DNA from: Promethearchaeota archaeon
Lineage (GTDB): Archaea; Asgardarchaeota; Lokiarchaeia; Helarchaeales; RDOG01
DNA length: 64,000 bases
Assembly (NCBI GenBank): GCA_011365055.1
Contig: RDOG01000008.1
Coordinates: forward strand, 111,321 to 175,320
Direction of reading: 5' to 3'
Shown piece by piece: positions 12,784 to 28,762 of this stretch (position 1 is the first letter of the stretch; each line of letters opens with the position of its first letter). The position numbers were made by a program, and so were the translations under genes. Below the pieces are notes generated by a model. That model made no database searches and was not told the DNA's origin. It saw only the letters and a program-made list of their open reading frames with translations.

Positions 12784-13170
12784 TTAAATGATAGGAACTA
12801 TAATTTCAAATCGATAAGGTTCTCTTAAATGCGATACAAATCTATAATATCCTTCCTTGGTAATATCTTGAATTTTATTTATATTTAATCTAACTTGTTT
12901 TTGTATAACAGAGAGTTGAAATAAACGATCTCCGTATTCTTTGATATCGTCAGCCTCAAGAAGATATTCTAAATTTTCAGATTCATTGAAAATCAATTCT
13001 ATGTAAGGTAAGGACTCATCAATAGTTTCAGATAAGTTAATTTCCTTATTTTTTTTAATTAATATTATCAAATCGTCTTGAATTTTAAAAATAACTTGAC
13101 CCAGCTTTAACGGAGCAAAAAGATTAATCCTTTTGACAAGCTCCATCACGCTTTTCTTGAGATCCTTCAT
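12784..13170 (-). CDS. Unknown small cytoplasmic protein, 128 aa
   Basis: Not recognised. Mixed charged/hydrophobic sequence, no cysteines, no membrane segment; the middle is rich in Glu and Asp. It sits between the convergent methyltransferase and the flx-hdr operon, 61 bases after the last operon gene and in the same direction, so it could be read through as an eleventh gene. ATG start. Confidence 0.55.
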   Translation of the reverse strand: MKDLKKSVMELVKRINLFAPLKLGQVIFKIQDDLIILIKKNKEINLSETIDESLPYIELIFNESENLEYLLEADDIKEYGDRLFQLSVIQKQVRLNINKIQDITKEGYYRFVSHLREPYRFEIIVPII

Positions 13171-13231
13171 TTGAATCTATTAAGATAAATTTAATATTCA
13201 GCAATAAACCTTATGAGTTTCATTTCATTTT

Positions 13232-14098
13232 TTAATATTCTTTAGGTAATTTACTCAATTCACTTTGAGTAAATACTGGACCGTCTACACAAATAAATTT
13301 CTCACCCAAGTTACATCTCCCGCATTTACCAATGCCACATTTCATCCTTGCTTCTAATGATAATAGAATTTGATTATCACTGAACCCTAATTCTTGTAAA
13401 ACAGGGATTGTAAATTTAATCATAATAGGTGGACCGCAAACTAATGCAAATGCGTTTTTTGGAGTTGGAGCTATTTCCTTGGTAATAGTGGGAACATAAC
13501 CTTCTCTTTTTGTCCAAGTTTCATCACCCTTATCAACAGTTAAAATCAAATTTAAAGTATCAAGCATTTCCCATTCTTTCAAGTCTAGTTTATAGCATAA
13601 TTCTCCTGGTTCTCGAGCTCCATAAATAACTGTAAGTTCACCATAATCTTTTCTGTTATCATCATCTAAGAGATATTTAGTTAAGGAACGTAGCGTTGAA
13701 AATGCAAAACCTCCACCAATTATTATAATATTTTTCCCTTTCATAGCTTCCACGGGCCAGCCGTTTCCAAGTGGACCTCGAATACCCATAATAGTCCCTA
13801 CCTTTGAATTATGTAGCATACCTGTGACTGTCCCTACATTTTTAACTGTAAATAGAAGAAATCCTTTTTCCGTAGGAGAAGAAGCTATTCCAATTGGACA
13901 TTCCCCGAATCCAAATAGGGATAGCTCTGCAAATTGGCCAGGAATGTACGAAAATTGCTCAATATCTTCAGAATCCTTAAATTCTAGTTTAAATGTTTTC
14001 AGATCATTTGGAGGATTTTCAGATATTATATCTGCAATCCTTACTAATTTTGGTATATATGGATTTTCGATTTTTACTTCTTCTTCGGTCAAATTCAT
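13232..14098 (-). CDS. flxA: FlxA-like NAD(P)H/FAD oxidoreductase (ferredoxin-NADP reductase family, [2Fe-2S])
   Basis: Electron-input subunit of the predicted Flx-Hdr complex. An FAD-binding ferredoxin-reductase domain covers about residues 1-110 (PGQFAELSL near 53). A nucleotide-binding domain follows (IIIIGGGFAFS near 123, VCGPPIMIK near 220). A C-terminal four-Cys [2Fe-2S] segment (CGIGKCGRC and FICVDGP, residues 254-271) is of the dihydroorotate-dehydrogenase-B/sulfhydrogenase-gamma type. Known analogues are FlxA, HydG/SHI-gamma and AsrB. It would oxidise NADH or NADPH and pass electrons to FlxB/FlxC. It is the last gene of the ten-gene leftward operon; its start overlaps flxB by four bases. 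Confidence 0.82.
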   Translation of the reverse strand: MNLTEEEVKIENPYIPKLVRIADIISENPPNDLKTFKLEFKDSEDIEQFSYIPGQFAELSLFGFGECPIGIASSPTEKGFLLFTVKNVGTVTGMLHNSKVGTIMGIRGPLGNGWPVEAMKGKNIIIIGGGFAFSTLRSLTKYLLDDDNRKDYGELTVIYGAREPGELCYKLDLKEWEMLDTLNLILTVDKGDETWTKREGYVPTITKEIAPTPKNAFALVCGPPIMIKFTIPVLQELGFSDNQILLSLEARMKCGIGKCGRCNLGEKFICVDGPVFTQSELSKLPKEY

Positions 14099-15132
14099 AT
14101 CTTACAACCCCCCTCACATATGATTTGGAGTATTTCTCTAATGTCTTGATTACATGGACATGAGATAAGGCATCTTCCACATCCAACACAACCACAAAGG
14201 TCATAATTATTAATATAATAATTAAATTTATGATAAATCCTTTGTCGAATTCGCTCTTTTTTTTCAGGTCGAGGATTATGTCCAGAACCATGAAGTGTAA
14301 ATAATGGAAATTGACAAGTATCCCAAAGTCTTACTCTTTGACCTTTGTTTTTATTGATATTTTCATCGATTACATCAAAGCAATGACAAGTCGGACAAAG
14401 GAATGAGCAAGTTCCACAACCAATACACGTATCACCCAATAATTTCCACATTTTATTATCATAAATTTCGTCCAGATTTTGGGTAATCACTTCTATTGCA
14501 AATAAATCTTTCATATTTTCTATAACTTTTTTTGAAAGAACTTCTGCTTTAATAATTTCATCATTTAATGCATCTCTTAACACATTTAAATTCTTGATTA
14601 TATTAACTCCACTATCAGTTATGCTTTCAACGAGGTATCTATCACCTAAATCTGTAAAAAAAATATCAGTATCTTCTTTATTGAAGGGACTCCCTTTAAC
14701 AGATGTACAGAAACACGTGGATCTCGGATGATTACAACCAAGACCTATTATAATGGAATTTTTTCTTCGTTCCATATAAAGTTTATCTTTAAATTCACCA
14801 AAAGCGAAGAAATTGTCGAGTAATTTAAAACTTCTTGCATCACAAGGTCTTATAGCGAAGACAATTTTAGACGAAGATTTCTCAAAAGTATCTGATAATT
14901 TAATTTCTCCATTAATTTTTTCATACTTAAATAAAACTTCTTTTTGAGGAAAAAAAATTGACTTCGGAGGAATTTTTGTATTCAAAAATTTAAGATAAAT
15001 TTCATCTGGATTTGTAATTTTTTGATAGGATAAATTGTTATCTTTCTTGACAGGAGCATAAACATCATTAAATTCCATAAGTAAATTAATAAATTTAGAA
15101 AGATTTTCTTTCATTAAGACTTTTTTTTCCAT
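14095..15132 (-). CDS. flxB: FlxB-like 4Fe-4S dicluster protein (HydB/AsrA family)
   Basis: 345 residues. The N-terminal domain resembles sulfhydrogenase beta/AsrA (IRPCDARSF near 111 and the CNHPRSTCFC cysteine string near 151-160). The C-terminus carries two [4Fe-4S] sites: CIGCGTCSFLCPTCHC near 238-253, and CGCVGCGRCLISCPC near 317-331. It would relay electrons between FlxA and the Hdr core. It sits between flxC (16-base gap) and flxA (four-base overlap). A GAAGGG sequence precedes the ATG. Confidence 0.8.
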   Translation of the reverse strand: MEKKVLMKENLSKFINLLMEFNDVYAPVKKDNNLSYQKITNPDEIYLKFLNTKIPPKSIFFPQKEVLFKYEKINGEIKLSDTFEKSSSKIVFAIRPCDARSFKLLDNFFAFGEFKDKLYMERRKNSIIIGLGCNHPRSTCFCTSVKGSPFNKEDTDIFFTDLGDRYLVESITDSGVNIIKNLNVLRDALNDEIIKAEVLSKKVIENMKDLFAIEVITQNLDEIYDNKMWKLLGDTCIGCGTCSFLCPTCHCFDVIDENINKNKGQRVRLWDTCQFPLFTLHGSGHNPRPEKKERIRQRIYHKFNYYINNYDLCGCVGCGRCLISCPCNQDIREILQIICEGGCKI

Positions 15133-15148
15133 TAATTTTTTCCCTTCT

Positions 15149-16123
15149 TTACTTATGTATCATAAAATCTTCATTATCATTTATGCTACAACTTCCAAAT
15201 GGAATTGGCTTTTCGGGATCAATTCCAGAAATAAAATCATATCTATTTTTTACAACTTTTTCTAGTTCTCTTGTAATTAATGTTAGATCTATGCCCATTG
15301 GACATGAATTTGTACAATCACCACAACTAGTACATCTACCCGCAACGTGAAATGCTCTGACGATGTGAAAAATTATTATATCACTTAGTTCTGTTGTCTT
15401 ATCAAACCAAATTGGTTTAATTTGATCGATAAAGCATTGATTACAATAACACATTGGACAAGCTTCTCGACATGAATAACATCTTATACAATTTGAAAGA
15501 ATCTTAGTGATAATTTCCCATTTTTCATCTGGAGATTTTTCATCAAATTCTTTTAAATCCTCATAATCATCATTATTATTTATCGCGATAGGTGATATTT
15601 CGCCAATTATAATATCACTTAAGGGGTGAATTCTAACTTTACATGTCTTACATGAATTATTTAAATAGTCACTCTTAGAAATAATCTCCTCAAAATCTTT
15701 TCCTTTAATAATTATTTTATTATCTTTTTCTATTACATCTAAAATTTCTTGATTGTTTATTATATCTTCTATCTTTCTCCTGTTGATGTTTCCACTACAT
15801 TCTATGCCAATTATAGTAATGTTATCTCGATTTATTTGATTCTCCAAAGCAAGTTGAATGATAGAACGGCCTGTACACCCTTTCGCAATGATCCCAATTT
15901 TCAAATCTTTATTAATTGATGGTAAAAATTTCGCAAGATTTAAAGAACAATACGAATTCCAAACTAATTTTTCGACACTTTCTTCCTTATTTAGAAAAAT
16001 TGGTCTAGTTCGAAAGGAAATTGAACCTTTAGAGTATCCAATTATCAAATCTACTTTTTTTTCTCTTAATAATTGACGAGCTTTAATTCTAATTTGTTGC
16101 TCAAATTCATTCATATTTAGCAC
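15149..16123 (-). CDS. flxC: FlxC-like 4Fe-4S dicluster protein
   Basis: 324 residues. The first 190 form an FrhB/CoF420-dehydrogenase-like alpha/beta region, with KGCTGRS near 93 and an isolated CKTC near 175. The C-terminal 130 hold two [4Fe-4S] motifs, CIRCYSCREACPMCYC and CTSCGDCTNSCP. This matches the iron-sulfur subunit that accompanies FlxA/FlxB in flxABCD-hdrABC loci. The GTG at 16123 lies inside mvhD; the ATG at 16114, just past the mvhD stop, is an equally good start (321 aa). It would act as an electron wire to the Hdr core. Confidence 0.75.
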   Translation of the reverse strand: MLNMNEFEQQIRIKARQLLREKKVDLIIGYSKGSISFRTRPIFLNKEESVEKLVWNSYCSLNLAKFLPSINKDLKIGIIAKGCTGRSIIQLALENQINRDNITIIGIECSGNINRRKIEDIINNQEILDVIEKDNKIIIKGKDFEEIISKSDYLNNSCKTCKVRIHPLSDIIIGEISPIAINNNDDYEDLKEFDEKSPDEKWEIITKILSNCIRCYSCREACPMCYCNQCFIDQIKPIWFDKTTELSDIIIFHIVRAFHVAGRCTSCGDCTNSCPMGIDLTLITRELEKVVKNRYDFISGIDPEKPIPFGSCSINDNEDFMIHK

Positions 16124-16566
16124 TTTTTTATTAAATTCTTATTAGGTCCCAATTTTTTAACTAATTCTACTACTTCTTTGACAATATCAGCAAATCTTTG
16201 TCCTTCTGCAGCAGAAACCCATGTGAAATTCACACGATCTGGTTCTATTCCAAAAAATGTAAGAATGTCTTTAAGAGTACCAAACCTTCTCCGAGCTACA
16301 AGATTACCACTAATGTAATGGCAGTCGCCAGGATGACACCCCGAAACTAATACACCATCCCAACCTTGTTGTAAGCTTTTAATAATATAGAAGGGGTTGA
16401 TCCTACCAGAACAAGGCACTCTTAAGATTCGAATATTTGGAGGATACTGAATTCTACTAACACCAGCAAGGTCTGCTCCTGCATAGGAACACCAGTTGCA
16501 TAAAAAGGCAATTATTTTAGGTTCCCAAACTTTTTTTTCATAACTTTCAATTTCAGTAATAACCAT
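16117..16566 (-). CDS. mvhD: MvhD/FlxD-type [2Fe-2S] electron-transfer subunit, copy 2
   Basis: 149 residues, the normal length for MvhD. Cysteines are conserved in FLCNWCSYAGADLAG (Cys23, Cys26), RVPCSGR and GCHPGDCHY, the known [2Fe-2S] ligands. In methanogens MvhD bridges hydrogenase to HdrA; in flx operons FlxD does the same for the FlxABC module. It lies directly between the fused hdrA and flxC, so it is the likely FlxD. A GGGAGTGA Shine-Dalgarno precedes the ATG. It is a paralogue of the longer MvhD at 19584. Confidence 0.9.
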   Translation of the reverse strand: MVITEIESYEKKVWEPKIIAFLCNWCSYAGADLAGVSRIQYPPNIRILRVPCSGRINPFYIIKSLQQGWDGVLVSGCHPGDCHYISGNLVARRRFGTLKDILTFFGIEPDRVNFTWVSAAEGQRFADIVKEVVELVKKLGPNKNLIKKC

Positions 16567-16581
16567 TATTTCACTCCCTTT

Positions 16582-19500
16582 TTAGAGCCTTTCCATAATC
16601 ATTAAATTTATCTGTTCATCCGTGAAACCTAAAATATCTATTGCTGAACATCTGCAACTTCCTGAACATGCCCCACATCCCTTACATAATGCTGAGTTGA
16701 TAATTGCTTTTCCTGTTTCTTGATCAATTGATATTGCATTATATGCACAATTCGTCACGCATAACCCACATCCACTGCATCGGAGAGGATTAATCAATGC
16801 AATTTTTCCTTCAGCTTCAATAATATCTTTAGATAAGATCGTACAAGCTCTTGAAACGGCTGCATTAGCTTGAGTAATACATTCTCGGATAGATTTTGGT
16901 GCATGAGCAAGACCGGCAACAAATATACCTTCTGTTGCAAAATCAACTGGACGTAACTTCACATGTGCTTCTAAAAAGAAATGATCTTCATTTAATGGAA
17001 CTTTTAACATTTTAGCTAAATTTTCATTTGTTTTAAAAGGCATAATAACGCCAGTACTTAAAACTAAAAGATCAGGTTTGATATTAAGAATGATATCTTC
17101 ATTTCTTTTAATAGATAATTCCAAATTATCGCTAGAAATTGTGAGTTTTGGATAATCTAAAGGATCATATTGTAAGAAAATGACACCCTTCTGACGAGCT
17201 TTTCTATAATACTTTTCTTTAAACCCATATGTACGAATATCTCTAAACAGAACTATGATTTCCGTATTTGGACTTTTTTCTTTAATTTTTAAAGAATTTT
17301 TTATTGCTTCAGCACAACAAATTCTACTACAATATGGATGTTCTTCATTTCGTGAACCAATACACTGGATCATTACTATTAATTTTTTATTTTTTATTTC
17401 GTTTGAGGCATGTAACATTTTCTCAAGTTGTAATTGAGTGATAATCCTTGAATCTTCCCCATAATTATATTCAGTTGGAATATATTCGTGGGCTCCAGTA
17501 GCTACAATAATAATGCCATGATCTAGTACTTCTTCTTTTTTATCATCACTATGAATTAAATAAGTCTTAAAATTTCCAATATATCCAACAATTTCCTTTA
17601 TTTCAGCTTTCTTAAACGTGATAATATTTGGATGGTGTTCTATTTTTTTAATTATAGAATTTATATAAGTTTGAACATCTTCTTCTTCTAATGTATTATA
17701 AATATTTCTTGCAAATCCACCTAATTTTTCTTCTTTTTCAATTAAATATGTTTGATAACCTTGGTTCGCAAAATTAATGGCAGCTACCATCCCAGAAATA
17801 CCGCCTCCTATTATTAAAGCATTAGGAATAACTTGTAAAGTTAATCTTTGCAAAGGTATTATATTACGGACCTTAGCAATAGCCATTCTGACAAGATCTA
17901 TTGCTTTTTCTGTTGCATTTTTAGGTTCGTGCATATGAACCCAAGAACATTGATCCCGAATATTCGTCATTTGGAATAAATAACGGTTTAATCCAGCTTC
18001 TCTTATCGTTTCTTGGAATAATGGTTCGTGAGTTCGGGGAGTGCAGGAAGCTACAATCACTCGGTTCAAATTAAATTCTTTAATTTTTTCTTTAATAATA
18101 TCTTGAGTATCGGCAGAACATGTATATAAATTTCTGTCGGCAAGAACAACATCAGGAAGGGATTTTACATATTCGGTAACTGCAGGAACATCAACAAATC
18201 CTCCAATATTAATGCCACAATGACAAATAAAGACTCCTATTCTAGGAGGTTGACCCCTTACATCTATTTCTTGTGGATATTTCTTTTTTGTTATTAATTT
18301 TCCTCTTGCAGTTGCAAGTAATTCATTGACACGACCAGCAGCTGCACTTGCTTCTGTTACGGTTTCGGGTATATCTTTTGGAGAATTATAAACACCACAA
18401 ACATAAATACCAGGTCGAGAAGTATCTACTGGATTAAATGAAGAAGTTTTAGCAAATTTATATTCATTTAATTCAATATTAAATATTTTGGCTATTTTTT
18501 CAGAATCAATAGGTGGATTTAATCCTACAGCAAGAACAACCATATTATAATTTTCTTCAATTAATTTTCCATTAGAAGATTCATAAGTTAATAACAAATT
18601 TTTAGTATCTGGAATCTCTGAAATTGAGGAAATTCTTGAGCGAATGTATCTAACACCATATTCATCCTTAGCGCGTTCAATATATTTATCAAAATCCTTA
18701 CCATAAGCTCGAATGTCCATTGAAAATATCGTGGGATTTACAAGATGCTCATGTTCTTTTGCTATAACAGCTTCTTTTGCGGTATACATACAACAAACTG
18801 AAGAACAATACTCTTTACCATGAGCAGGATCTCGAGATCCAACGCAATGTAGAAAAGCAATTTTTCTAGGTATATCCCCATCTGAAGGACGAAGAATTCT
18901 CCCTCCATATGGTCCACTTGCACTTAGAATTCTTTCAAATTCTATACTAGTAACTATATTCTTATACTTTCCATAACCATATATTTTTAATATTGATGGA
19001 TCAAACTCATCAAAACCTGGAGCAAGTATCACGCTGCCAACATTTAATTTAATTTCCTTATCTTCTTGTTCATATTCAACAGCACCTGCTTTACATACCC
19101 CAGAACAGATTCCACATCCAATACAAATATTTTGATCAATACAATACACTAATGGAACCGCCTGAGGATATTTCACGAATACTGCTTTTGATTTTGCTAA
19201 TTTTTCATTAAAAAAATCAATACCTTCAATCGGGCAATATTGTGCACAAACACCGCATCCCGTGCATTTATTTTGATTAATAAACAAGGATTTTTTGTTT
19301 AAAGTAACAAAAAAATTTCCTGCTTCCCCCTCAATATCTATAATTTCTGAATTTATTATTAAATCAATATTTGGATGTCTTCCAGCTTCCACTAATTTTG
19401 GGGATACGATACACATGGCACAATCATTTGTTGGAAAAGTTTTATCTAACTGCGCCATAACCCCTCCAATACTTGAGGTTTTTTCAGTTAGATATACTTT

Positions 19501-19584
19501 AAAGCCAGATTCACTTAAATCTAAAGCAGCTTGGGTGCCCCCAATCCCACCTCCTACTATTAAAACGGCACCAATTTTATCCAT
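16582..19584 (-). CDS. hdrA: Fused double HdrA (heterodisulfide reductase subunit A-like), 1000 aa
   Basis: Flavin/iron-sulfur core of the complex. Known HdrA performs flavin-based electron bifurcation between ferredoxin and a disulfide. Half 1 (about residues 1-440) has the FAD motif VGGGIGG at 10-16, HdrA string DKTFPTNDCAMC near 47, [4Fe-4S] motifs CTGCGVCAQYCP and CIGCGICSGVC near 105-165, and LHCVGSRD with YCSSVCC near 245-265. Half 2 (about 445-1000) starts with the HdrA N-terminal domain (IGVFICHCG), then CTPRTHEP, a second GGGISGM dinucleotide fold near 593, CSRICC, and a C-terminal ferredoxin (CSGCGLC and CKGCGAC). Canonical HdrA is about 650 residues, so this is a double-length fusion. 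The start overlaps the upstream mvhD stop by one base behind GGAGGTT. Confidence 0.92.
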   Translation of the reverse strand: MDKIGAVLIVGGGIGGTQAALDLSESGFKVYLTEKTSSIGGVMAQLDKTFPTNDCAMCIVSPKLVEAGRHPNIDLIINSEIIDIEGEAGNFFVTLNKKSLFINQNKCTGCGVCAQYCPIEGIDFFNEKLAKSKAVFVKYPQAVPLVYCIDQNICIGCGICSGVCKAGAVEYEQEDKEIKLNVGSVILAPGFDEFDPSILKIYGYGKYKNIVTSIEFERILSASGPYGGRILRPSDGDIPRKIAFLHCVGSRDPAHGKEYCSSVCCMYTAKEAVIAKEHEHLVNPTIFSMDIRAYGKDFDKYIERAKDEYGVRYIRSRISSISEIPDTKNLLLTYESSNGKLIEENYNMVVLAVGLNPPIDSEKIAKIFNIELNEYKFAKTSSFNPVDTSRPGIYVCGVYNSPKDIPETVTEASAAAGRVNELLATARGKLITKKKYPQEIDVRGQPPRIGVFICHCGINIGGFVDVPAVTEYVKSLPDVVLADRNLYTCSADTQDIIKEKIKEFNLNRVIVASCTPRTHEPLFQETIREAGLNRYLFQMTNIRDQCSWVHMHEPKNATEKAIDLVRMAIAKVRNIIPLQRLTLQVIPNALIIGGGISGMVAAINFANQGYQTYLIEKEEKLGGFARNIYNTLEEEDVQTYINSIIKKIEHHPNIITFKKAEIKEIVGYIGNFKTYLIHSDDKKEEVLDHGIIIVATGAHEYIPTEYNYGEDSRIITQLQLEKMLHASNEIKNKKLIVMIQCIGSRNEEHPYCSRICCAEAIKNSLKIKEKSPNTEIIVLFRDIRTYGFKEKYYRKARQKGVIFLQYDPLDYPKLTISSDNLELSIKRNEDIILNIKPDLLVLSTGVIMPFKTNENLAKMLKVPLNEDHFFLEAHVKLRPVDFATEGIFVAGLAHAPKSIRECITQANAAVSRACTILSKDIIEAEGKIALINPLRCSGCGLCVTNCAYNAISIDQETGKAIINSALCKGCGACSGSCRCSAIDILGFTDEQINLMIMERL

Positions 19585-20354
19585 TAATGAACCTCCATTG
19601 AAGCATAAAAAGGTGTTATTTCCTCGACTTTTGAAAGAATAACCAATCCTTGATTGCGTAAAATGACAATATGTTCTAATATCTTGCTTGTATCCTCATC
19701 AAGTTGTTCTGCTAATGATTTTACAGATCTTTCGCTTTTATCTAACAAAATCAAAATTTTTTGACGTGTATATTCATCAAAAATGGCATTATTTTGAATT
19801 TCTTCAAACTTATCCTCTGAAATTCTGTTGTCATAAACATTACCTTCATCAATAATTTTCCTTTTTCGCCCTACAAGAGCACGCAATCTAAATTCTTCAA
19901 CGGTTCTTTGAATTGCGTCAATATTTAACATCATATCAGGATTATTTTTTGACTCCTTCAATGGAGTAGGACCAATTTTTTTAATTTTTTCAGTAAATTC
20001 CGTAACTATTTTTTGAAATCTTATACCTTCTGCAGCAGAAACCCATTCTAATTGTATGCGATCAGCCATATTTATTAATTTCAACAGTTTTTTCAGTAAG
20101 TGATACTTCATTTCTGCTTCATAATTTCCGCTTAAATAATGACAATCGCCTAGATGGCACCCCATAATTAATACTCCATCCATTTTATTTTTCAAAGCTT
20201 GAATAACAAATTTAGGATCAACTCTTCCACTGCACATAATTCTAATAACTCGAATATTTGGGGGATATTGCATCCTACTAACCCCAGCTAAATCCGCACC
20301 TGCATAAGAGCACCAATTACAAAGAAATGCTAAAATTTTTGGTTCAAATTCCAA
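19584..20354 (-). CDS. mvhD: MvhD-type [2Fe-2S] subunit with C-terminal extension, copy 1
   Basis: The first 135 residues are MvhD (FLCNWCSYAGADLAG, IMCSGR, GCHLGDCHY). About 110 extra residues follow, and the last 60 look like a winged-helix fold (ILLLDKSERSVKSLAEQ helix-turn pattern). I choose the TTG at 20354, placed right after the preceding hdrA stop and behind AGGAAGTGGT. An ATG at 20402 would add 16 residues unlike MvhD and overlap the upstream gene by 47 bases. The extension may be structural rather than DNA-binding. It links the split HdrA pair to the fused HdrA that follows it. Confidence 0.87.
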   Translation of the reverse strand: MEFEPKILAFLCNWCSYAGADLAGVSRMQYPPNIRVIRIMCSGRVDPKFVIQALKNKMDGVLIMGCHLGDCHYLSGNYEAEMKYHLLKKLLKLINMADRIQLEWVSAAEGIRFQKIVTEFTEKIKKIGPTPLKESKNNPDMMLNIDAIQRTVEEFRLRALVGRKRKIIDEGNVYDNRISEDKFEEIQNNAIFDEYTRQKILILLDKSERSVKSLAEQLDEDTSKILEHIVILRNQGLVILSKVEEITPFYASMEVH

Positions 20355-20355
20355 A

Positions 20356-22020
20356 TTAACCACTTCCTGATAGAGATAGAATTTGCGATAAAATTTGTTC
20401 ATCCTTATAATGGCGAATAATTATTGCTTGATGCGGACAAGTAGCGCCACATGTACCGCATCCTTTACATAAGACTTCTTGTACATAGGCAACACCTTCA
20501 TCATCTTTAAAAATAGCTCCAAAAGGGCAAATTTTTATGCAAATTTCGCATCCTATACATTGATTTTTATTAACAAATGCAGTATTACCTTCCACTTCTA
20601 TTTTACTTTTAGATAAAATCGTTGATACCCTAGCCGCAGCCGCGATTCCTTGCGAAATTGATTCTTGAACATTTGAAGGCCACTTTGTAGAACCACAAAC
20701 AAAAATTCCATCGGTTGCAAAATCAATAGGTCTTAATTTAACATGTGCTTCCAAAAAGAAACCATTTTCTTCCAGAGGAACCTTCACCATTTGAGCTAAG
20801 ATCTTAGAATCAGAATTAGCTATCAAAGGTGTTGATAATACAATGAGATCATATTTTAATTCTAAATTTTCATTTAAATACTCATTATGTATAATAATTT
20901 TATCTTTTTCGACAATTGCAGGTCTTTTAGGATCATATTTAATAAAAATGACACCTAAATCTCTAACATCCTTGTAATATTGTTCAAACTCAATCCCAGG
21001 AGAATATATATCCCTAAATAAAATGAATATGTTTGCATTACTATTTTTTTGTTTTATTATCTTAGCATTTTTTAATGCTGTCATACAACAAACATTAGAA
21101 CAATATAATCGTTCTTTATCTCGTGAACCAACACATTGTATCATTACGATATTTTTTGAATTAAAAATATTTTCCAAAAATTGTAATTCCAATTCCTGTT
21201 GATTAATTACTTTAATGCCGTCATAACTATACATTCCTTCTGGTTGTAAAACTTGAGTTCCTGTAGCAATTATTATGCAACCTGAATTGTATTTAATTTT
21301 TTTATTTTCTTTAGAAATAATGATTTTAAAGTTTCCAATATATCCCTCAATATTAATAACTTGACTGGATAATAAAACTTCAATATTTTTATGATTCATG
21401 ACTAATTTTATGATATTTAAAACCTTAGAAGGTTCAATATCATCAGGAAAAAGTGAATATAAATAATTTAACCTTCCACCTAATTTATCTTCTTTTTCGA
21501 TTAATTTTACTTCAAAACCTTGATTTGCCAAATTAAGGGTGGCGGTCATACCAGCAATACCTCCCCCAATTACAACGGCTGAAGGTAACACATCTACAGT
21601 GTTTTTAGAAAGAGATTCCAACAAGGTTGCTCTTGCTACACCCATTCTGATTAAGTCTCTTGCTTTTGCATTTGCTTGTTCTTTATCTTTTTGATGAACC
21701 CAAGAACATTGTTCTCGAATATTCACAAATTCAAAATAATAAGGATTTAATCCCTTTTCGTTGCAAATATTCCTAAATAATGGCTCATGAGTTCTTGGAG
21801 TGCATGCTGCAACAAGTACTCTATTTAATTTATTTTCTTCTATCCCATTTTTTATTTGAGACAACCCAGTTTCAGAACACGTGTATAAATTATCTTGTGT
21901 AAAAACTACATTCGGTAAACTTCTAGCAAATACCGCAAGATTTTCGCAATCGATAGTATTTGCTATATTACTACCACAATGACAGATAAATACACCTATT
22001 CTTATTTTTTCGTTATCCAA
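20356..22020 (-). CDS. hdrA: HdrA-like protein, C-terminal-half type, 554 aa
   Basis: Collinear with residues of about 445-1000 of the fused HdrA at 16582. It has the N-terminal domain RIGVFICHCGSN, the ACTPRTHEPLF segment, the REQCSWVH string, an FAD/NAD fold VIGGGIAGM near 147, IQCVGSRD with YCSNVCC near 295-315, and a terminal two-cluster ferredoxin (CIGCEICIKICP and CKGCGTCGATCP). It lacks the ferredoxin insert and the DKTFPTNDC motif, which are found in the neighbouring 431-residue protein. The start is TTG behind GAGGCG, 12 bases after that neighbour. Expected role: flavin- and iron-sulfur-carrying half of a split HdrA. Confidence 0.9.
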   Translation of the reverse strand: MDNEKIRIGVFICHCGSNIANTIDCENLAVFARSLPNVVFTQDNLYTCSETGLSQIKNGIEENKLNRVLVAACTPRTHEPLFRNICNEKGLNPYYFEFVNIREQCSWVHQKDKEQANAKARDLIRMGVARATLLESLSKNTVDVLPSAVVIGGGIAGMTATLNLANQGFEVKLIEKEDKLGGRLNYLYSLFPDDIEPSKVLNIIKLVMNHKNIEVLLSSQVINIEGYIGNFKIIISKENKKIKYNSGCIIIATGTQVLQPEGMYSYDGIKVINQQELELQFLENIFNSKNIVMIQCVGSRDKERLYCSNVCCMTALKNAKIIKQKNSNANIFILFRDIYSPGIEFEQYYKDVRDLGVIFIKYDPKRPAIVEKDKIIIHNEYLNENLELKYDLIVLSTPLIANSDSKILAQMVKVPLEENGFFLEAHVKLRPIDFATDGIFVCGSTKWPSNVQESISQGIAAAARVSTILSKSKIEVEGNTAFVNKNQCIGCEICIKICPFGAIFKDDEGVAYVQEVLCKGCGTCGATCPHQAIIIRHYKDEQILSQILSLSGSG

Positions 22021-22032
22021 TTCTTTTTCGCC

Positions 22033-23328
22033 TCATATTTTCATAATATATTCTGCAGCTTTTGCAGCAGCACCGCTTGCTTCAATAACAGACGTAGGAA
22101 TATCTCTAGGACCATGTGAGCAACCACAGACATAAATTCCAGGAATATTGGTTTCCAAGGGATTTGTAAAATTGGTTTTTATGAATTTATTATTATCTTG
22201 TTCCAAACCAGCAGCTTTTACTAAATTTTCTGTGCTATCACTTGGGATCATGGCAGTTGCCAATACAACTAAATCAACTTTTTGTGATTTAATTTCAAGC
22301 GTACTTAAATTTTCATAAAAAAGAATAGGATTCTCATTTTCATCAATTTTAATTTCGCTGATAATCCCTTTAATATAATGAACAGAATATTCTTTTTCTG
22401 CTCGTTCAATATATTTTTGAAATCCCTTGCCACCCGCTCTCATATCGATATAATAGATATAAGTATTTACTTCACTATCATGTTCATATGCTAAAATTGC
22501 TTGTTTTGTAGAATACATACAACAAACAGAAGAACAAAATGGATTGTGTTTCACATCTCTTGAACCAACACATTGAATAAAAGCTATATTTTTTGGAGTT
22601 TTTTTGTCAGATAATCGTTCAATATGCCCCAAAGTTGGACCAGAGGTAGATAATAATCTCTCAAACTCTAAACCCGTAATGACATTTTTGAATTTTTTAT
22701 ATCCATATAACGTTAAAGCAGAAGGATCAAATTGGTCAAATCCTGTTGCAACTATAATAGCATTAGGAGTTAATTCAAATTCAGTATCTTCTTGATTAAA
22801 AGCAATTGCTTGCTTAGGACATAGTTTTTCGCAGATTTTACAGATACCCTTTTTATGATATAAGCATTTTTCTTTGTCTATGGCCATTACCGCAGGAATT
22901 CCTTGTAAAAAATAAAGATAAATTGCTTTTCTCATCCTAAGCTCTTGATCAAACTTATCTTCTACTTTTACAGGACATTTCTCAACGCACAAACCACAAT
23001 TTATGCATTCAGTTTCCTTCACATATCTAGCTTTTTTAAGGAATTTAGCAATGAAAAAACCATCTTTCCTCTGTAAATTTGTTAATTGAGATAACGTATG
23101 AATATTAATACGTTCATGTCTATAACAATCAGAGAGTTTAGGGGATAAAATACAGATTGAGCAATCATTTGTCGGAAAGGTTTTATCTAATTGAGCCATA
23201 TGACCTCCAATACAAGGCTCTTTTTCAACTACATCAACCGAAAACCCCATTTCAGCTAGGTCCAAAGCTGCTTGAATACCGGCAATCCCGCCACCTATTA
23301 CAAGGACGTTCCCCTTATCGTGATACAA
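22033..23328 (-). CDS. hdrA: HdrA-like protein, N-terminal-half type, 431 aa
   Basis: Collinear with the first ~440 residues of the fused HdrA. FAD motif VIGGGIAGIQAALDL near 10, MAQLDKTFPTNDCSIC near 46, a first ferredoxin site CINCGLCVEKCP near 108, and a second, altered site (CLYHKKGICKICEKLCP) with an insertion between its first two cysteines. IQCVGSRD and FCSSVCCMYS are near 250-270, and a C-terminal CGCSHGPRDIP segment closes the flavin fold. It lacks the CHCG domain of normal HdrA, which is supplied by the next gene. TTG start with GGAGT upstream. It presumably assembles with the 554-residue partner. Confidence 0.9.
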   Translation of the reverse strand: MYHDKGNVLVIGGGIAGIQAALDLAEMGFSVDVVEKEPCIGGHMAQLDKTFPTNDCSICILSPKLSDCYRHERINIHTLSQLTNLQRKDGFFIAKFLKKARYVKETECINCGLCVEKCPVKVEDKFDQELRMRKAIYLYFLQGIPAVMAIDKEKCLYHKKGICKICEKLCPKQAIAFNQEDTEFELTPNAIIVATGFDQFDPSALTLYGYKKFKNVITGLEFERLLSTSGPTLGHIERLSDKKTPKNIAFIQCVGSRDVKHNPFCSSVCCMYSTKQAILAYEHDSEVNTYIYYIDMRAGGKGFQKYIERAEKEYSVHYIKGIISEIKIDENENPILFYENLSTLEIKSQKVDLVVLATAMIPSDSTENLVKAAGLEQDNNKFIKTNFTNPLETNIPGIYVCGCSHGPRDIPTSVIEASGAAAKAAEYIMKI

Positions 23329-23352
23329 TTTGTACAGACTCCAATTTTTTAT

Positions 23353-24237
23353 TCATTTATTCGAATAATTTATCTCTTGTAGAAAGTTCATCGGTTTTAC
23401 GCCATGAAATTTAAGTCCCAACTCTTTTTCTGCAATATTATGTGAAAGTGCAATTAATTCTGTTATGTAAAAAACAGGAAAATTGAAATCAGTATTGTAT
23501 TCTTTATTTACGGTCCTTTGACCGAAATCAAATTGTAAAAAACACGCTGGACAGACTACAGTAACACAATTTGCTTCAGATTTTTTGATACTTTTAAGTT
23601 TTCTGTATAATATTTCATTTGATAATTTTTCATCTATTTTACTTAATGGAGAACCACAGCATTCCATTTTTTGATCATAATGAATGCTTTTTGCACCTAA
23701 AGATTGAATAATTTCATCTAAACTTTTTGGTTCAAAAGGATCATCCCAATTTATGATTTCAGAAGGTCTTAAGAAATGACAGCCATAATGACATGCTACC
23801 TTAAATTCATCAAGAGGGGTAACAACTTTACTTTGAACTTGATCTAAATTCTCATAAATTAATTGTGCAGCATGTTTAATTTCCACATTTCCCGAATATT
23901 TTTTCCCAATCTTTGCTAAATTATCATTGATTTTACCTTTAAGTTTTATATCCCTGTTAAGAAAGAATTTCACTGACTTTAGAGTCTCAACACATCCAGA
24001 ACATAAACTTATTAATGGAGAACCATTATTTTCAGCCAAACTTAAGTTTCGAGCTCCAAGAGTTAACCAGGTATCATTATCTACTGCAGGTATACCAGTA
24101 GGATCGGGACAACAAGATGCATTTTCTAAGTGAGAAACGTCAAAATTTAATTTATTAAATACTTGCCTTGCAGAACTTTCAATAAATGGAAGCCTTGCAG
24201 GAATGACACAGCCTAAAAACATATTCATCTTCGTCAA
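23353..24237 (-). CDS. hdrB: Heterodisulfide reductase subunit B (HdrB)
   Basis: Disulfide-reducing subunit with two noncubane [4Fe-4S] clusters. Both cysteine-rich CCG domains are complete: Cys10, Cys42-Cys43, Cys79-x2-Cys82; and Cys149/Cys153, Cys193-Cys194, Cys229-x2-Cys232. The first agrees with the known CX31-38CCX33-36CXXC pattern. The 294 residues match methanogen HdrB. No CoM/CoB biosynthesis genes are in the window, so the natural disulfide or other acceptor is open. The TTG start is seven bases past the hdrC stop, whose GAGTGAT doubles as Shine-Dalgarno. Confidence 0.92.
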   Translation of the reverse strand: MTKMNMFLGCVIPARLPFIESSARQVFNKLNFDVSHLENASCCPDPTGIPAVDNDTWLTLGARNLSLAENNGSPLISLCSGCVETLKSVKFFLNRDIKLKGKINDNLAKIGKKYSGNVEIKHAAQLIYENLDQVQSKVVTPLDEFKVACHYGCHFLRPSEIINWDDPFEPKSLDEIIQSLGAKSIHYDQKMECCGSPLSKIDEKLSNEILYRKLKSIKKSEANCVTVVCPACFLQFDFGQRTVNKEYNTDFNFPVFYITELIALSHNIAEKELGLKFHGVKPMNFLQEINYSNK

Positions 24238-24243
24238 TTTTCA

Positions 24244-24753
24244 TCACTCAACATTATTCCAATTATAATGTATTATTTTATCGAACCCAACTTCTTTTAA
24301 AAGAGTTTGAATTTCTCTAAGTGCTGAAATTTCTATTATTGGAAGACCTAGTTGTTCGCGTCTTCGATTTATTGGAGTGGTAAATGGAACTGCAACTCCA
24401 TTTTCCAAAACTGAAATACCTTGTGATTTAAAAGCTTCAGGACATTTTCCTGCTTTAACTGCAGCATTTTTTAAAACGTTGAAAATTTCAGTTAATTCAA
24501 CATGTTGTGGGCATAATTCTACGCATTTTTGACAAGTAGAACAAAGCCATACATTTGGTTCTTGTTTTTCTATCAATCTATCTTTTAATCCGAGTATTGA
24601 TTCTTCAATAATCTTACGGGGATTATAAGATCCGTTTGTTAATCTCGCAATAGGACATCCTCCAGAACAAGTAGCGCATTGAAAGCAATAGTTAAGAGAA
24701 AAATTATGTGACTGTAATTTTTTGCGAAAATCAAAATCAATTGACAATCCCAT
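24244..24753 (-). CDS. hdrC: Heterodisulfide reductase subunit C (HdrC)
   Basis: Ferredoxin-like subunit that wires HdrA to HdrB. Two complete [4Fe-4S] motifs: Cys23/26/29/33 (CFQCATCSGGCP) and Cys71/74/77/81 (CSTCQKCVELCP). 169 residues, soluble, with no membrane domain as in HdrE-type systems. It is the first gene of the operon; the ATG is preceded by GAGGT (24760-24764) six bases away. Its promoter shares the 550-base region with the divergent FrhB-like gene. Confidence 0.93.
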   Translation of the reverse strand: MGLSIDFDFRKKLQSHNFSLNYCFQCATCSGGCPIARLTNGSYNPRKIIEESILGLKDRLIEKQEPNVWLCSTCQKCVELCPQHVELTEIFNVLKNAAVKAGKCPEAFKSQGISVLENGVAVPFTTPINRRREQLGLPIIEISALREIQTLLKEVGFDKIIHYNWNNVE

Positions 24754-25303
24754 TTCATTACCTCGAAAATTTTTAAAATGATTTAAATCAGATCATCGAA
24801 TAAATGAATTTAACCTATTTTTTTATAATAAGTTATATTTTTTTTATTAAATTCTTAAGAAATTTACTTGATTTTAGTTGTTATTTATATATTACGTTTG
24901 GGTTTTTATTATAAAAAGTTTATTATGTGTATATTAATAACTGATTTAATCATTATTTTTTCCTAATTTAGGAATTTCATAAAAATCTTAAATTTAATTT
25001 CCTAAATCAATAAAAAAGAGTAAAAATTACGTTTTTTATCCGTTTTTTAGTATTAAAAATCCGAAATCAGTCATATGAAAATAATAAAATTAAGGTATTT
25101 TTCTGGAAAAAGAAAACATATTATTTATGACGAATTTCGGATTTTTTTTAATAAAAACAGTGTAAAAATTAGGAAAAACACAAAATTTTTATTAATTTAA
25201 TCTTTATTTATTAAATAATGCTTTATAATCTATATTTTTTTGTATTAGCTAAAAAAATTTTAACAGAAAGAAATAAAAATTAAATTTTTTTACGTGATAA
25301 AGA
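24754..25303. promoter_or_regulatory. Divergent promoter region of the hdr-flx operon and the FrhB-like gene, with dyads
   Basis: 550 bases without a gene. Candidate TATA elements: leftward at 24821-24828 (reads TTATAAAA on the minus strand) for hdrC, and rightward at 25222-25229 (TTTATAAT) for the FrhB-like gene. Between them is an interrupted palindrome TTCCTAA-T-TTAGGAA (24960-24974). Further copies are TTCCTAA (24999-25005) and TTAGGAA (25169-25175). There is also a 13-bp perfect inverted repeat, AAAAATCCGAAAT (25055-25067) with ATTTCGGATTTTT (25134-25146). These are plausible operators for the nearby Lrp/AsnC proteins; binding is inferred, not shown. Confidence 0.5.
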
Positions 25304-26440
25304 TTGACTGAAATATCTACATCTAAAAATAATGAAGTAGTTCCAAAATCATTTGAAGATCTTATTCAAGAGGTGCATTTAAGAGGAATATGTGGTCAGT
25401 GTGGGGGATGTGTTAATTTCTGTTCTGCCAATGAAATTGTAGCAATAGAAATGAAGGAAGATGGACCTCCGATTTATGTTAATAAGGATAATTGCTTGCA
25501 TTGTGGAATATGTTATTTAATCTGCCCACAAATACACGTTCTTGATGAAGCGTTGTATCAAAAATTTAATTGGAAAGCACCCATTGGACATTGGCAAAAA
25601 GTATTGAGTATTCAAGCATCCAGCCAAGAAATAAGAAATCGTGCTACCGATGGTGGAGTTATTACAGGAATCTTGAATTATTTACTTGAATATAATTTAA
25701 TAGATGGTGCATTGGTATGTAAAAAGAAAGGTCCATTTCAAAGAGAATCATTTTTTGCAACAACGAAAGAGGATTTAATTGAAGCTGAAGGCAGTAAATT
25801 TGACTTTTCTTCAGGGACAAATCAATTAAGTAAATATACTACGTTTACTCCTACAATTTCTGGACTTAAAAAAGTCCTAGATTTGGATAGGACTAAGATC
25901 GCAGTAGTAGGAGTCCCATGTCAAATTCATAGTATAAGAAAAATGCAGGAACTAAAAATTTTACCAGCCCACGTTATAAAATATGCTTTGGGATTGTTTT
26001 GTTATGAAAATTTCACCTTTGATGAAATAGGAAGAGAAAAAATTGAAAAAAAGTTCAATTTTTCTTTTGAAAATATAATTAAGATGAACTTAAAAGATAA
26101 AGTAATGTTTTATTTTAAAGATGGATCTCAAATTAATGTCTCCTTTGAGGATATGGAAGAATATATGAGACCTGCTTGTAGTGCTTGTGGTGATTTTTCT
26201 AATGTATTTTCAGATATTGCATTTGGTGGACTTGGATCTCCTGATGGTTATACAACAACTATGATTAGAACAAATACTGGACAAAAAATTTACGATGGTG
26301 CTTTGAAAAATGGATTTATATTGGAAAATGAGAAAATTAACACTTCTGTAAGACAATCTGAAAAATTAGCTAAAATAATCGCCTTTGCAAAAATGAAAAA
26401 TAAAAGATCAATTAATACTTTATCTGAAATTATGAAATAA
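25304..26440 (+). CDS. FrhB/FdhB-type F420- or ferredoxin-linked flavoprotein with two 4Fe-4S clusters
   Basis: N-terminal ferredoxin domain CGQCGGCVNFC (about residues 33-43) and CLHCGICYLICP (near 66-77), then the FrhB-type core: RNRATDGGVITGIL near 109, GVPCQIHSIRKM near 204, and PACSACGDFSNVFSDIAFGG near 289. Known family: FrhB/FpoF/FdhB/FqoF oxidise or reduce F420 with FAD, and relatives act on sulfite or with Hdr. Length 378. TTG start with GTGAT a few bases upstream. It is transcribed divergently from the hdr-flx operon and so is a probable functional partner, an entry or exit point for F420 or ferredoxin electrons. It converges with the first Lrp gene. Confidence 0.85.
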   Translation: MTEISTSKNNEVVPKSFEDLIQEVHLRGICGQCGGCVNFCSANEIVAIEMKEDGPPIYVNKDNCLHCGICYLICPQIHVLDEALYQKFNWKAPIGHWQKVLSIQASSQEIRNRATDGGVITGILNYLLEYNLIDGALVCKKKGPFQRESFFATTKEDLIEAEGSKFDFSSGTNQLSKYTTFTPTISGLKKVLDLDRTKIAVVGVPCQIHSIRKMQELKILPAHVIKYALGLFCYENFTFDEIGREKIEKKFNFSFENIIKMNLKDKVMFYFKDGSQINVSFEDMEEYMRPACSACGDFSNVFSDIAFGGLGSPDGYTTTMIRTNTGQKIYDGALKNGFILENEKINTSVRQSEKLAKIIAFAKMKNKRSINTLSEIMK

Positions 26441-26441
26441 T

Positions 26442-26888
26442 TTACTTCAAGTCGTCTTTAAGAGTTCTTAATACAATACAACTCTCTATCTCTTTAACTC
26501 CCTGAAGGTTCCGAACGAAATCAATTGTATCATCCACTTCTTTTAAATCATTCACTTCAATTTTTACAAGTAGTCCACATTTACCACTCATATAAAATGC
26601 TTCTGTAACATCTACTGTAGTTAATATCTGATCGGCAATTTCTTTTATATTGGATTGAATGACAGGAGTAATAGTCAAAAAAGCGAGCACTTTTTTATTA
26701 TTGTCAGGTGGATGTAATACTACTGTAAAGTGGCTTATTACATCTTCATGCATTAATTTATTTACTCTTTTTCTAACTGTTGATTCACTTATTTTTAATT
26801 CAGTTGCGATCTCGGCAAAGGATGCACGTCCATCTTTTTTTAAAAAATTAATAATTTTCCTATTCACATCGTCAAGGTGTTCTAACAA
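26442..26888 (-). CDS. Lrp/AsnC-family transcriptional regulator 1
   Basis: N-terminal winged helix with AEIATELKISESTVRKRVNKL as recognition region (about residues 26-46), then the AsnC ligand-binding/oligomerisation domain (MSGKCGLLVKIE and IESCIVLR motifs). I start it at the TTG at 26888, by analogy with its paralogue: both then begin Met-x-x-x-Leu-Asp-Asp and sit behind GGGGG. A TTG at 26906 would add six residues. 148 residues. A 13-bp perfect inverted repeat lies just upstream of the Shine-Dalgarno and may be its own operator. It presumably senses an amino acid or related metabolite and controls the adjacent redox genes. Confidence 0.88.
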   Translation of the reverse strand: MLEHLDDVNRKIINFLKKDGRASFAEIATELKISESTVRKRVNKLMHEDVISHFTVVLHPPDNNKKVLAFLTITPVIQSNIKEIADQILTTVDVTEAFYMSGKCGLLVKIEVNDLKEVDDTIDFVRNLQGVKEIESCIVLRTLKDDLK

Positions 26889-26901
26889 AAAATAATCCCC
26901 C

Positions 26902-26958
26902 AACAAAAAAGATTAACTTATTATAATAATGATTTTAGGAAATAAAATCTTTTTTGTT
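26902..26958 (-). promoter_or_regulatory. 13-bp perfect inverted repeat in the leader of Lrp gene 1
   Basis: Arms AACAAAAAAGATT (26902-26914) and AATCTTTTTTGTT (26946-26958) are exact reverse complements, with a 31-base spacer. The left arm directly abuts the GGGGG Shine-Dalgarno (26897-26901). It may be an autoregulatory operator or an mRNA stem that affects ribosome access. The arms are A/T-rich, but a 13-base exact match is unlikely at random so close together. Confidence 0.5.
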
Positions 26959-28318: not shown

Positions 28319-28762
28319 TTAATTGGTTCTTTTAAGTACTCTTAGCACTATACAAGATTCAATTTCAGAAATACCACGAATTTCTCTCACGGTTTCAATA
28401 AATTCGTCCAATTTTTGTAGACTAGCAACTTCTATCTTTAGAAGGATTCCACACTTACCAGACATATAAAATGATTCAGAAACTTCGGGATAGGTCGAAA
28501 TTTCATCTGCAATTTCCTTAATATTAGATTGATTATTTGGAATTATTGTTATGAAAGCTAATACCGTTTTTCCCCCTTGTTCAGGGTTGAGTTGAATTGT
28601 AAATTTATCAATTATGTTTTTTTTAATTAATTTAGATACCCTTTTTCGAACAGTACTTTCACTTAAGCCTAAATGTTCGGAAATCTCTCTATATGGTTTT
28701 CTTCCATCATTCATTAGCATTTGAATTATTTTTTTATTAATATCATCTAATTCTTGAATCAA
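28319..28762 (-). CDS. Lrp/AsnC-family transcriptional regulator 2
   Basis: Paralogue of the regulator at 26442, with the same layout: winged helix (SEHLGLSESTVRKRVSKL) and AsnC domain (SFYMSGKCGILLKIE, IESCIVLR). 147 residues. Identical blocks such as QSNIKEIADEI/QI and SESTVRKRV indicate a fairly recent duplication, while the recognition helix and ligand-binding region differ. TTG start behind GGGGG. Two TTCGGAA elements (28820-28826 and 28851-28857), exactly 31 bases apart, lie upstream, consistent with autoregulation on one helix face. Confidence 0.9.
   Translation of the reverse strand: MIQELDDINKKIIQMLMNDGRKPYREISEHLGLSESTVRKRVSKLIKKNIIDKFTIQLNPEQGGKTVLAFITIIPNNQSNIKEIADEISTYPEVSESFYMSGKCGILLKIEVASLQKLDEFIETVREIRGISEIESCIVLRVLKRTN

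What the first reader, a model, noticed from the sequence alone, without database searches (positions are those of the whole stretch)
16582..23328. HdrA duplicated: one copy split into two genes, the other fused into one 1000-residue protein
Seen: the 431-residue protein (22033-23328) aligns with the first half and the 554-residue protein (20356-22020) with the second half of the 1000-residue protein (16582-19584). The same order is followed by an MvhD gene in each case. This reads as a tandem duplication of an [HdrA-N / HdrA-C / MvhD] unit in which one unit fused or the other split. Two flavin/iron-sulfur cores in one operon imply an asymmetric complex with two electron paths.
Basis: partly seen in the sequence, partly recalled or inferred. 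Interest (0 to 1): 0.75.

Follow-up and report, generated by a model that had tools for sequence, protein, structure and literature searches.

The report
Paired double HdrA electron-splitting operon
An Asgard archaeon carries one operon that encodes the core of an electron-splitting enzyme (HdrA) twice, once as two genes and once as one long fused gene, and the same pairing recurs in many related archaea, so it is a real, old and probably functional arrangement rather than an assembly error or a recent copy.

Summary
The 431- and 554-residue proteins align at 46% identity with the two parts of the 1000-residue protein, and MvhD follows each unit. Two corrections. First, the pieces are not halves of one HdrA: each is a trimmed HdrA subunit, so a unit equals an HdrA dimer with unlike members. 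One carries Cys197 and the inserted ferredoxin, the other the N-terminal cluster domain and the C-terminal ferredoxin. Second, it is no local tandem duplication: split and fused units are separate old lineages, each found in Lokiarchaeia and Bathyarchaeia, and exclusive sisterhood is weakly rejected (AU p 0.03) or borderline (0.066). The order A_N-A_C-MvhD-A_fused holds in 45 of 56 loci, fetched mainly for a split-unit gene. The core occurs with Flx-like or MetV-MetF modules, and by eye with a hydrogenase; some arrays have three units. MvhD after the split unit usually has a long tail, a winged helix where examined. Fused and tandem HdrA heterodimers are published; I did not find the fixed split-plus-fused pair in the literature searched. 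Likely a double-HdrA bifurcating complex; one joint complex and two bifurcations are unproven.

The parts
24244..24753 (-). hdrC, 169 aa, two 4Fe-4S sites; first gene of the operon
   Evidence: Pfam Fer4_8; NCBIfam TIGR03290 CoB_CoM_SS_C E 8.8e-34, below its cut-off (116.5 of 160 bits); at the start of many relatives' arrays
23353..24237 (-). hdrB, 294 aa, two CCG cysteine motifs (disulfide-reducing site)
   Evidence: Pfam CCG, two stretches; TIGR03288 E 4.3e-84, below its cut-off (282 of 345 bits); PDB 5odc_B E 9.7e-66; CC and CxxC pairs present
22033..23328 (-). Split unit, member 1 (A_N, 431 aa): HdrA without the N-terminal domain and C-terminal ferredoxin; holds FAD site, Cys194/Cys197 and inserted ferredoxin (8 Cys)
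20356..22020 (-). Split unit, member 2 (A_C, 554 aa): HdrA with N-terminal cluster domain, FAD domain lacking the inserted ferredoxin and Cys197, and C-terminal ferredoxin (8 Cys). TTG start after a GAGG motif; same frame as A_N, separated by TGA and 12 nt
19584..20402 (-). mvhD1, long MvhD: FlpD domain plus C-terminal ArsR-like winged helix; real start probably near 20366
16582..19584 (-). Fused unit (A_fus, 1000 aa): residues 2-426 correspond to member 1, 445-995 to member 2
16117..16566 (-). mvhD2, short MvhD (149 aa) next to the input module
   Evidence: Pfam FlpD E 4.9e-54
15149..16123 (-). FlxC-like (324 aa): weak FrhB_FdhB_C match plus 4Fe-4S sites
   Evidence: PF04432 E 2.9e-7
14095..15132 (-). 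FlxB-like (345 aa): AsrA / sulfhydrogenase beta type, Fer4_22
   Evidence: below NCBIfam cut-offs
13232..14098 (-). FlxA-like (288 aa): FAD/NAD-binding, AsrB / HydG type
   Evidence: below NCBIfam cut-offs
25304..26440 (+). FrhB/FdhB-type protein (378 aa), divergent from the operon here; in many relatives an FrhB-type gene lies inside or at the end of the array
   Evidence: Pfam PF04432 E 1.4e-36

Best explanation
The operon encodes an NAD(P)H-linked, flavin-based electron-bifurcating (or, run backwards, confurcating) Hdr enzyme with two HdrA pseudo-dimers instead of one HdrA homodimer. Shown: each unit has one Cys197-bearing HdrA member and one N-domain-bearing member; there are four flavin sites in all with the residues linked to bifurcation (E356, K409), two MvhD, one HdrBC and one Flx-like module, in an order kept across two archaeal classes. 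Inferred: electrons enter from NAD(P)H through the Flx-like proteins and the short MvhD2 into the fused HdrA; the long winged-helix MvhD1 joins the fused and the split HdrA; HdrC docks on a unit's N-domain and HdrB reduces a still unknown disulfide, while ferredoxin is served at the inserted ferredoxin domains. The core accepts exchangeable modules (Flx-like; MetV-MetF; perhaps hydrogenase).
Against: No biochemistry or expression data; co-transcription does not prove one complex. Only one HdrBC pair serves two N-domain docking sites in the window. Asgard disulfide substrate unknown. Some relatives depart from the pattern: G005 has a different fused HdrA in first place (L131), L132 and L134 have other unit combinations, L130 lacks a called A_N, L178 has a 433-aa piece of another branch as the next HdrA, L181 has an FrhB gene inserted. 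In the fused clade two Lokiarchaeia proteins (L131_8551, L134_4811) branch before the Bathyarchaeia, unlike in the split clade. Flx-like genes and HdrB/HdrC score below NCBIfam cut-offs.
Confidence: 0.6

Rival explanations
1. Two isozymes in one operon: the split and the fused unit assemble into separate Hdr complexes that share HdrBC and are used under different conditions or with different partners.
For: The units belong to different old lineages; the core occurs with different input modules; L177 has an HdrC-type gene (490 aa) beside the split unit and separate hdrC-hdrB after the fused one, so each unit can have its own partner.
Against: Order and linkage in 45 of 56 loci, broadly congruent branching of the two units, a single HdrBC pair in most of the arrays tallied, and the long MvhD placed between units.
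Confidence: 0.27
2. Recent tandem duplication with fusion or fission at this locus.
For: Same gene order in both units; 46% identity of HdrA parts and 59% of MvhD.
Against: Both units recur in Bathyarchaeia and Lokiarchaeia as separate groups; exclusive sisterhood weakly rejected on N+C (AU p 0.0295), borderline on N (p 0.066); the inserted-ferredoxin spacing differs: C5-C6 8 or 13 in all 51 split-N, 3 in 50 of 51 fused-N.
Confidence: 0.08
3. The 431 and 554 genes are one gene read through the TGA between them (error or selenocysteine), so both units are really fused.
For: In the window the two frames agree and only TGA plus 12 sense-coding nt separate them; Asgard archaea use UGA as selenocysteine in other HdrA genes (PMC11227280, passages).
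Against: In 41 of 49 neighbouring pairs the second gene is out of frame with the first; the TTG start follows a GAGG motif.
Confidence: 0.02

Closest known systems
HdrABC-MvhADG of methanogens (5odc)
   Same: HdrA flavin, N-domain, inserted and C-terminal ferredoxins, Cys197, E356 and K409; HdrB CCG sites; MvhD
   Different: HdrA homodimer replaced by an unlike pair, twice; no hydrogenase in the operon; MvhD1 carries a winged helix
Type II (fused) HdrA and tandem HdrA heterodimers (PMC12054007, passages; PMC9012536, passages)
   Same: Two thioredoxin-reductase domains with complementary N-domain and Cys197; authors already propose heterodimers, and two bifurcations when a second HdrA is clustered
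   Different: Those papers treat ANME and other methane- or alkane-metabolising archaea; here a split and a fused unit are paired in one operon in Lokiarchaeia and Bathyarchaeia. PMC9012536 gives the opposite order of the halves for its fused HdrA3/4 (N-domain first).
FlxABCD-HdrABC (reported for MK-D1 and other Asgard archaea in PMC7015854, passages)
   Same: Flx-like FAD/NAD, iron-sulfur and MvhD genes next to Hdr genes
   Different: Two HdrA pseudo-dimers, not one HdrA. The FlxABCD domain make-up is recalled, from no call.
MetFV-HdrABC-MvhD of Moorella (described in PMC9012536, passages)
   Same: Fused HdrA, MvhD and MetFV in one cluster, as in loci L102, L108, L109
   Different: The Loki version adds the split unit and its MvhD
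QmoA/QmoB (label recalled; two-gene HdrA pairs of like sizes seen in bacterial and archaeal loci such as L012, L030)
   Same: Two-gene split of like design
   Different: No QmoC-type membrane subunit in the operon; the 169-aa HdrC scores 66.5 of 300 bits on NCBIfam qmoC

Membership tests
HdrA (bifurcating type) | FAD GxGxxG motif, CX..CXXXCC cluster, E356 and K409 | tested here: met
   present in all four HdrA parts of the window; in relatives 51 of 51 per set, except one gap in split-N (GxGxxG) and 2 of 51 split-C with N at K409
HdrA (bifurcating type) | Measured flavin-based bifurcation | not testable with these tools
   needs purified enzyme
HdrA (NCBIfam models) | Curated cut-offs of NF040770, NF041778, NF041891 | tested here: not met
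   999 of 1100, 773 of 1400, 702 of 1300 bits for the fused protein, lower for the other two
Type II / heterodimeric HdrA | Two HdrA members with complementary N-domain and Cys197 | tested here: met
   fold match of both parts to HdrA
HdrBC | HdrB with two CCG motifs; HdrC with two 4Fe-4S sites | tested here: met
HdrBC (NCBIfam equivalogs) | Curated cut-offs of TIGR03288 and TIGR03290 | tested here: not met
   282 of 345 and 116.5 of 160 bits
FlxABCD-HdrABC | FlxA FAD/NAD protein, FlxB and FlxC iron-sulfur proteins, FlxD (MvhD) in one operon with Hdr (recalled) | tested here: inconclusive
   matching domains in order, but no Flx-specific model was hit and scores are below related NCBIfam cut-offs
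Qmo complex | QmoC membrane subunit | tested here: not met
   NCBIfam NF038018 66.5 of 300 bits on a 169-aa HdrC

The most novel reading that the evidence does not exclude
The operon encodes a modular electron wire: winged-helix MvhD connectors join two or three HdrA pseudo-dimers in series, so one NAD(P)H- (or methylene-H4F- or H2-) fed complex makes successive flavin bifurcations, to reach lower potentials or to serve several acceptors at once. The winged helix would be a protein-protein connector, not a DNA-binding part.
Probability: 0.2. Interest if true: 0.85.

Novelty: new variant of a known kind. Interest (0 to 1): 0.5.

Why it matters
HdrA complexes set how anaerobic archaea make low-potential ferredoxin. 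A conserved double-HdrA core that is kept in Lokiarchaeia and Bathyarchaeia and swaps its input module would be a new architecture for electron bifurcation, in part in the relatives of eukaryotes. It turns the published but untested idea of two bifurcations in one complex into a defined set of genes to purify. The winged-helix tail on MvhD gives a testable guess for how units are joined.

Tried and rejected
Local tandem duplication: see rivals. Read-through of the TGA between 431 and 554: rejected because 41 of 49 pairs are out of frame. Shortened HdrA parts in L169, L170, L176, L185: runs of N, not real splits. Consensus promoter and terminator scan of 13000-25400: 76 promoter-like sites against 66.8 expected and 4 terminator-like against 4.3, so uninformative. 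The N tree alone could not settle one or two origins of the split state (2 changes; AU p for one clade 0.176); a clade of split plus the L062/L132 fused proteins, without the fused unit, is not rejected either (p 0.4). Direct joint folding of 431+554 was not done: both fold jobs went to the fused protein and MvhD1.

Rows chosen or dropped: the trees used HdrA parts from 56 of the 77 loci listed (near-copies left out). Two long rows (L188_6858, L187_2773) were taken out of the C tree (98 to 96 rows). The reduced sets left out the bacterial fused HdrAs (L004, L049, L052) that fall with the fused unit, and L187 and L188. L096 (same place as L002), ORFs with X and ORFs covering under 80% of the reference were left out of the residue counts. 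L178 was taken off the 46 loci that the script marked.
Full report
WHAT IS THERE. The - strand from 24753 to 13232 reads hdrC, hdrB, A_N (431 aa), A_C (554 aa), mvhD1 (272 aa), A_fus (1000 aa), mvhD2 (149 aa), then three genes of FlxC-, FlxB- and FlxA-like type; an FrhB-type gene (25304-26440) faces away. A_N and A_C align with the two parts of A_fus at 46% identity, E about 1e-124 and 1e-154, and the two MvhD at 59%. The nearest named relatives are a Helarchaeota MAG (72% over A_N) and a Prometheoarchaeum MAG (63%), so the window is very likely from an Asgard archaeon of the Lokiarchaeia; no genome is held for the window itself. Class names below are mine: 'Lokiarchaeia' is the tool's class that holds these two MAGs, 'Bathyarchaeia' the class of a record titled Bathyarchaeota (L003); the genomes themselves are unnamed.

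HOW CONSERVED. In the class of the Helarchaeota genome, 72 of 83 genomes have an A_C match (split or fused) at E <= 1e-120. At E <= 1e-175, 53 of 227 genomes of the phylum match; one of these (G005) has a fused-length frame, and the other 52 have frames of 555-818 aa; 50 of the 52 lie in that class and two (G391, G424) outside it. In the Bathyarchaeia class 36 of 256 genomes have an A_N match at E <= 1e-130, eight of them at 56-60% identity. I fetched regions of up to 20 kb for 40 places in the first class and 20 more places. Of 56 loci tallied (window, L001, L002, 39 of the 40, and 14 of the 20), the script marked 46 as A_N-A_C-MvhD-A_fus; L178 does not belong, because its last gene is a complete 433-aa N-type piece that groups elsewhere, which leaves 45. 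In L127 and L128 the MvhD is fused to A_C; in L001, L114, L175, L176 and L179 the fused gene is interrupted, cut or masked. The eleven others are: L106, L169, L170, L174, L182 cut by contig ends or N runs; L181 with an FrhB gene inserted; L130, L131, L132, L134 and L178 differently built. Four places (L002/L096, L097, L129, L133) have a third, also fused, unit.

HISTORY. In the tree of N parts (106 rows) the fused-unit proteins fall in one clade (SH-aLRT 99) with Lokiarchaeia and Bathyarchaeia members; the clade also takes in bacterial fused HdrAs (L004, L049, L052) and two odd rows (L004_9977, L188_6858). The split-unit proteins lie outside it, mostly in one clade of 30 rows (100), with the L177-L180 group placed nearby. 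In the tree of C parts (96 rows) the fused clade has 44 rows (100, again with the three bacterial ones) and the split clade 38 rows (97). In the joint tree (56 rows, bacterial ones left out) the fused unit is one clade (100) and the split unit one clade (85); in the reduced N tree the split unit needs two changes. Other archaeal fused HdrAs branch outside both, so with the Thermoplasmatota root the split looks derived by fission; the root is an assumption. Holding split and fused units together as exclusive sisters costs likelihood: AU p 0.066 on N, 0.0295 on N+C. A spacing difference in the inserted ferredoxin also separates them: C5-C6 is 8 or 13 in all 51 split-N and 3 in 50 of 51 fused-N; the five canonical HdrAs have 8 in four and 3 in one. 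Both units branch in broadly the same order, which fits joint inheritance or joint transfer, except that L131_8551 and L134_4811 branch first in the fused clade. G424, in the Asgard phylum but outside the class, falls among Bathyarchaeia; transfer or a mis-binned 7-kb contig would both explain that.

MODULES AND CONNECTORS. Flx-like genes follow the last MvhD in 24 of the 45 loci, plus L096. In a second operon of some of the same genomes (G056: L101 and L102; G039: L110 and L109) the last HdrA is fused to MvhD (about 1153 aa) and is followed by MetV and MetF (seen in L102, L108, L109; Pfam for two of these proteins). In L177 hydrogenase-type genes follow, judged from their sequence only. MvhD directly after a split A_C is long (247-287 aa) in 44 of 47, MvhD between two fused units in 6 of 8, while the last MvhD is short (up to 175 aa) in 27 of 32; lengths are mechanical ORF lengths. 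The tail is a winged helix: among 21 long MvhD aligned, Pfam HTH_5 matches 14 and PF0610-like_N 13; model pLDDT 83.4; ArsR/SmtB-type fold matches (best 6cdb, E 1.6e-3); profile match to ArsR-type proteins (E 3e-4). A search for MvhD with 'winged helix' found one paper, seen only as a listing.

MECHANISM. I favour one complex with two HdrA pseudo-dimers, fed by NAD(P)H through the Flx-like module, with HdrBC reducing an unknown disulfide and ferredoxin served at the inserted ferredoxin domains. Shown: genes, domains, residues, linkage. Inferred: one complex, direction of flow, connector role of the winged helix. [quoted passage not shown]

NOVELTY. Fused and tandem HdrA in archaea are in print (PMC9012536; PMC12054007; PMC11237513, passages, which reports fused HdrA duplications and several hdrA copies in Lokiarchaeota and Thorarchaeota), as is Flx-Hdr in Asgard archaea (PMC7015854, passages). 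Eight full-text searches were read as listings; ten papers were opened and passages seen from nine (the find in PMC9430772 returned none). I saw no description of the split-plus-fused pair or of the winged-helix tail on MvhD. PMC6478937 (passages) describes a Helarchaeota cluster with a disulfide reductase/FlpD protein; its gene list was not seen, so overlap is not excluded. Most subscription papers are not in the library.

Noticed in passing
L131 (G005): In an otherwise matching operon the first unit is a fused HdrA of another branch (with L134_4811), as if the split unit had been replaced.
   Followed up: partly
L134 591-4028 (also end of L112): A 576-aa C-type HdrA directly followed by a split A_C: two C-type members with no Cys197-bearing partner between them.
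   Followed up: no
L177 and L180: Bathyarchaeia arrays with more than one HdrC/HdrB set (L177: a 490-aa HdrC-type gene before and hdrC-hdrB after the units), fitting one HdrBC per unit.
   Followed up: no
L178 5512-10236: After the split unit and MvhD comes a lone 433-aa N-type HdrA near the contig end that groups with L003_9989, so the second unit there may be split too.
   Followed up: no
L001 12941-15362; L114 6438-8543: Fused HdrA frame interrupted in two relatives (L001 in two frames near a contig end; L114 an in-frame TGA). Left as they are.
   Followed up: no
G001 and G002 loci (for example G001:C12:27470-28180): TGA codons inside HdrA genes of about 660-680 aa, as expected for published Asgard selenocysteine HdrA.
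   Followed up: no
window 26442-26906 and 28319-28762: Two Lrp/AsnC-like regulator genes near the operon (judged from sequence only); a similar gene sits after MetF in L102 and L109.
   Followed up: no
window 3077-5038: 653-aa old-yellow-enzyme-type oxidoreductase (Oxidored_FMN plus Pyr_redox_2).
   Followed up: no
L004 1021-11215: Bacterial array with a canonical-length HdrA (686 aa), a 1510-aa fused HdrA, MvhD and an FlxC-like gene: another double-HdrA layout.
   Followed up: no
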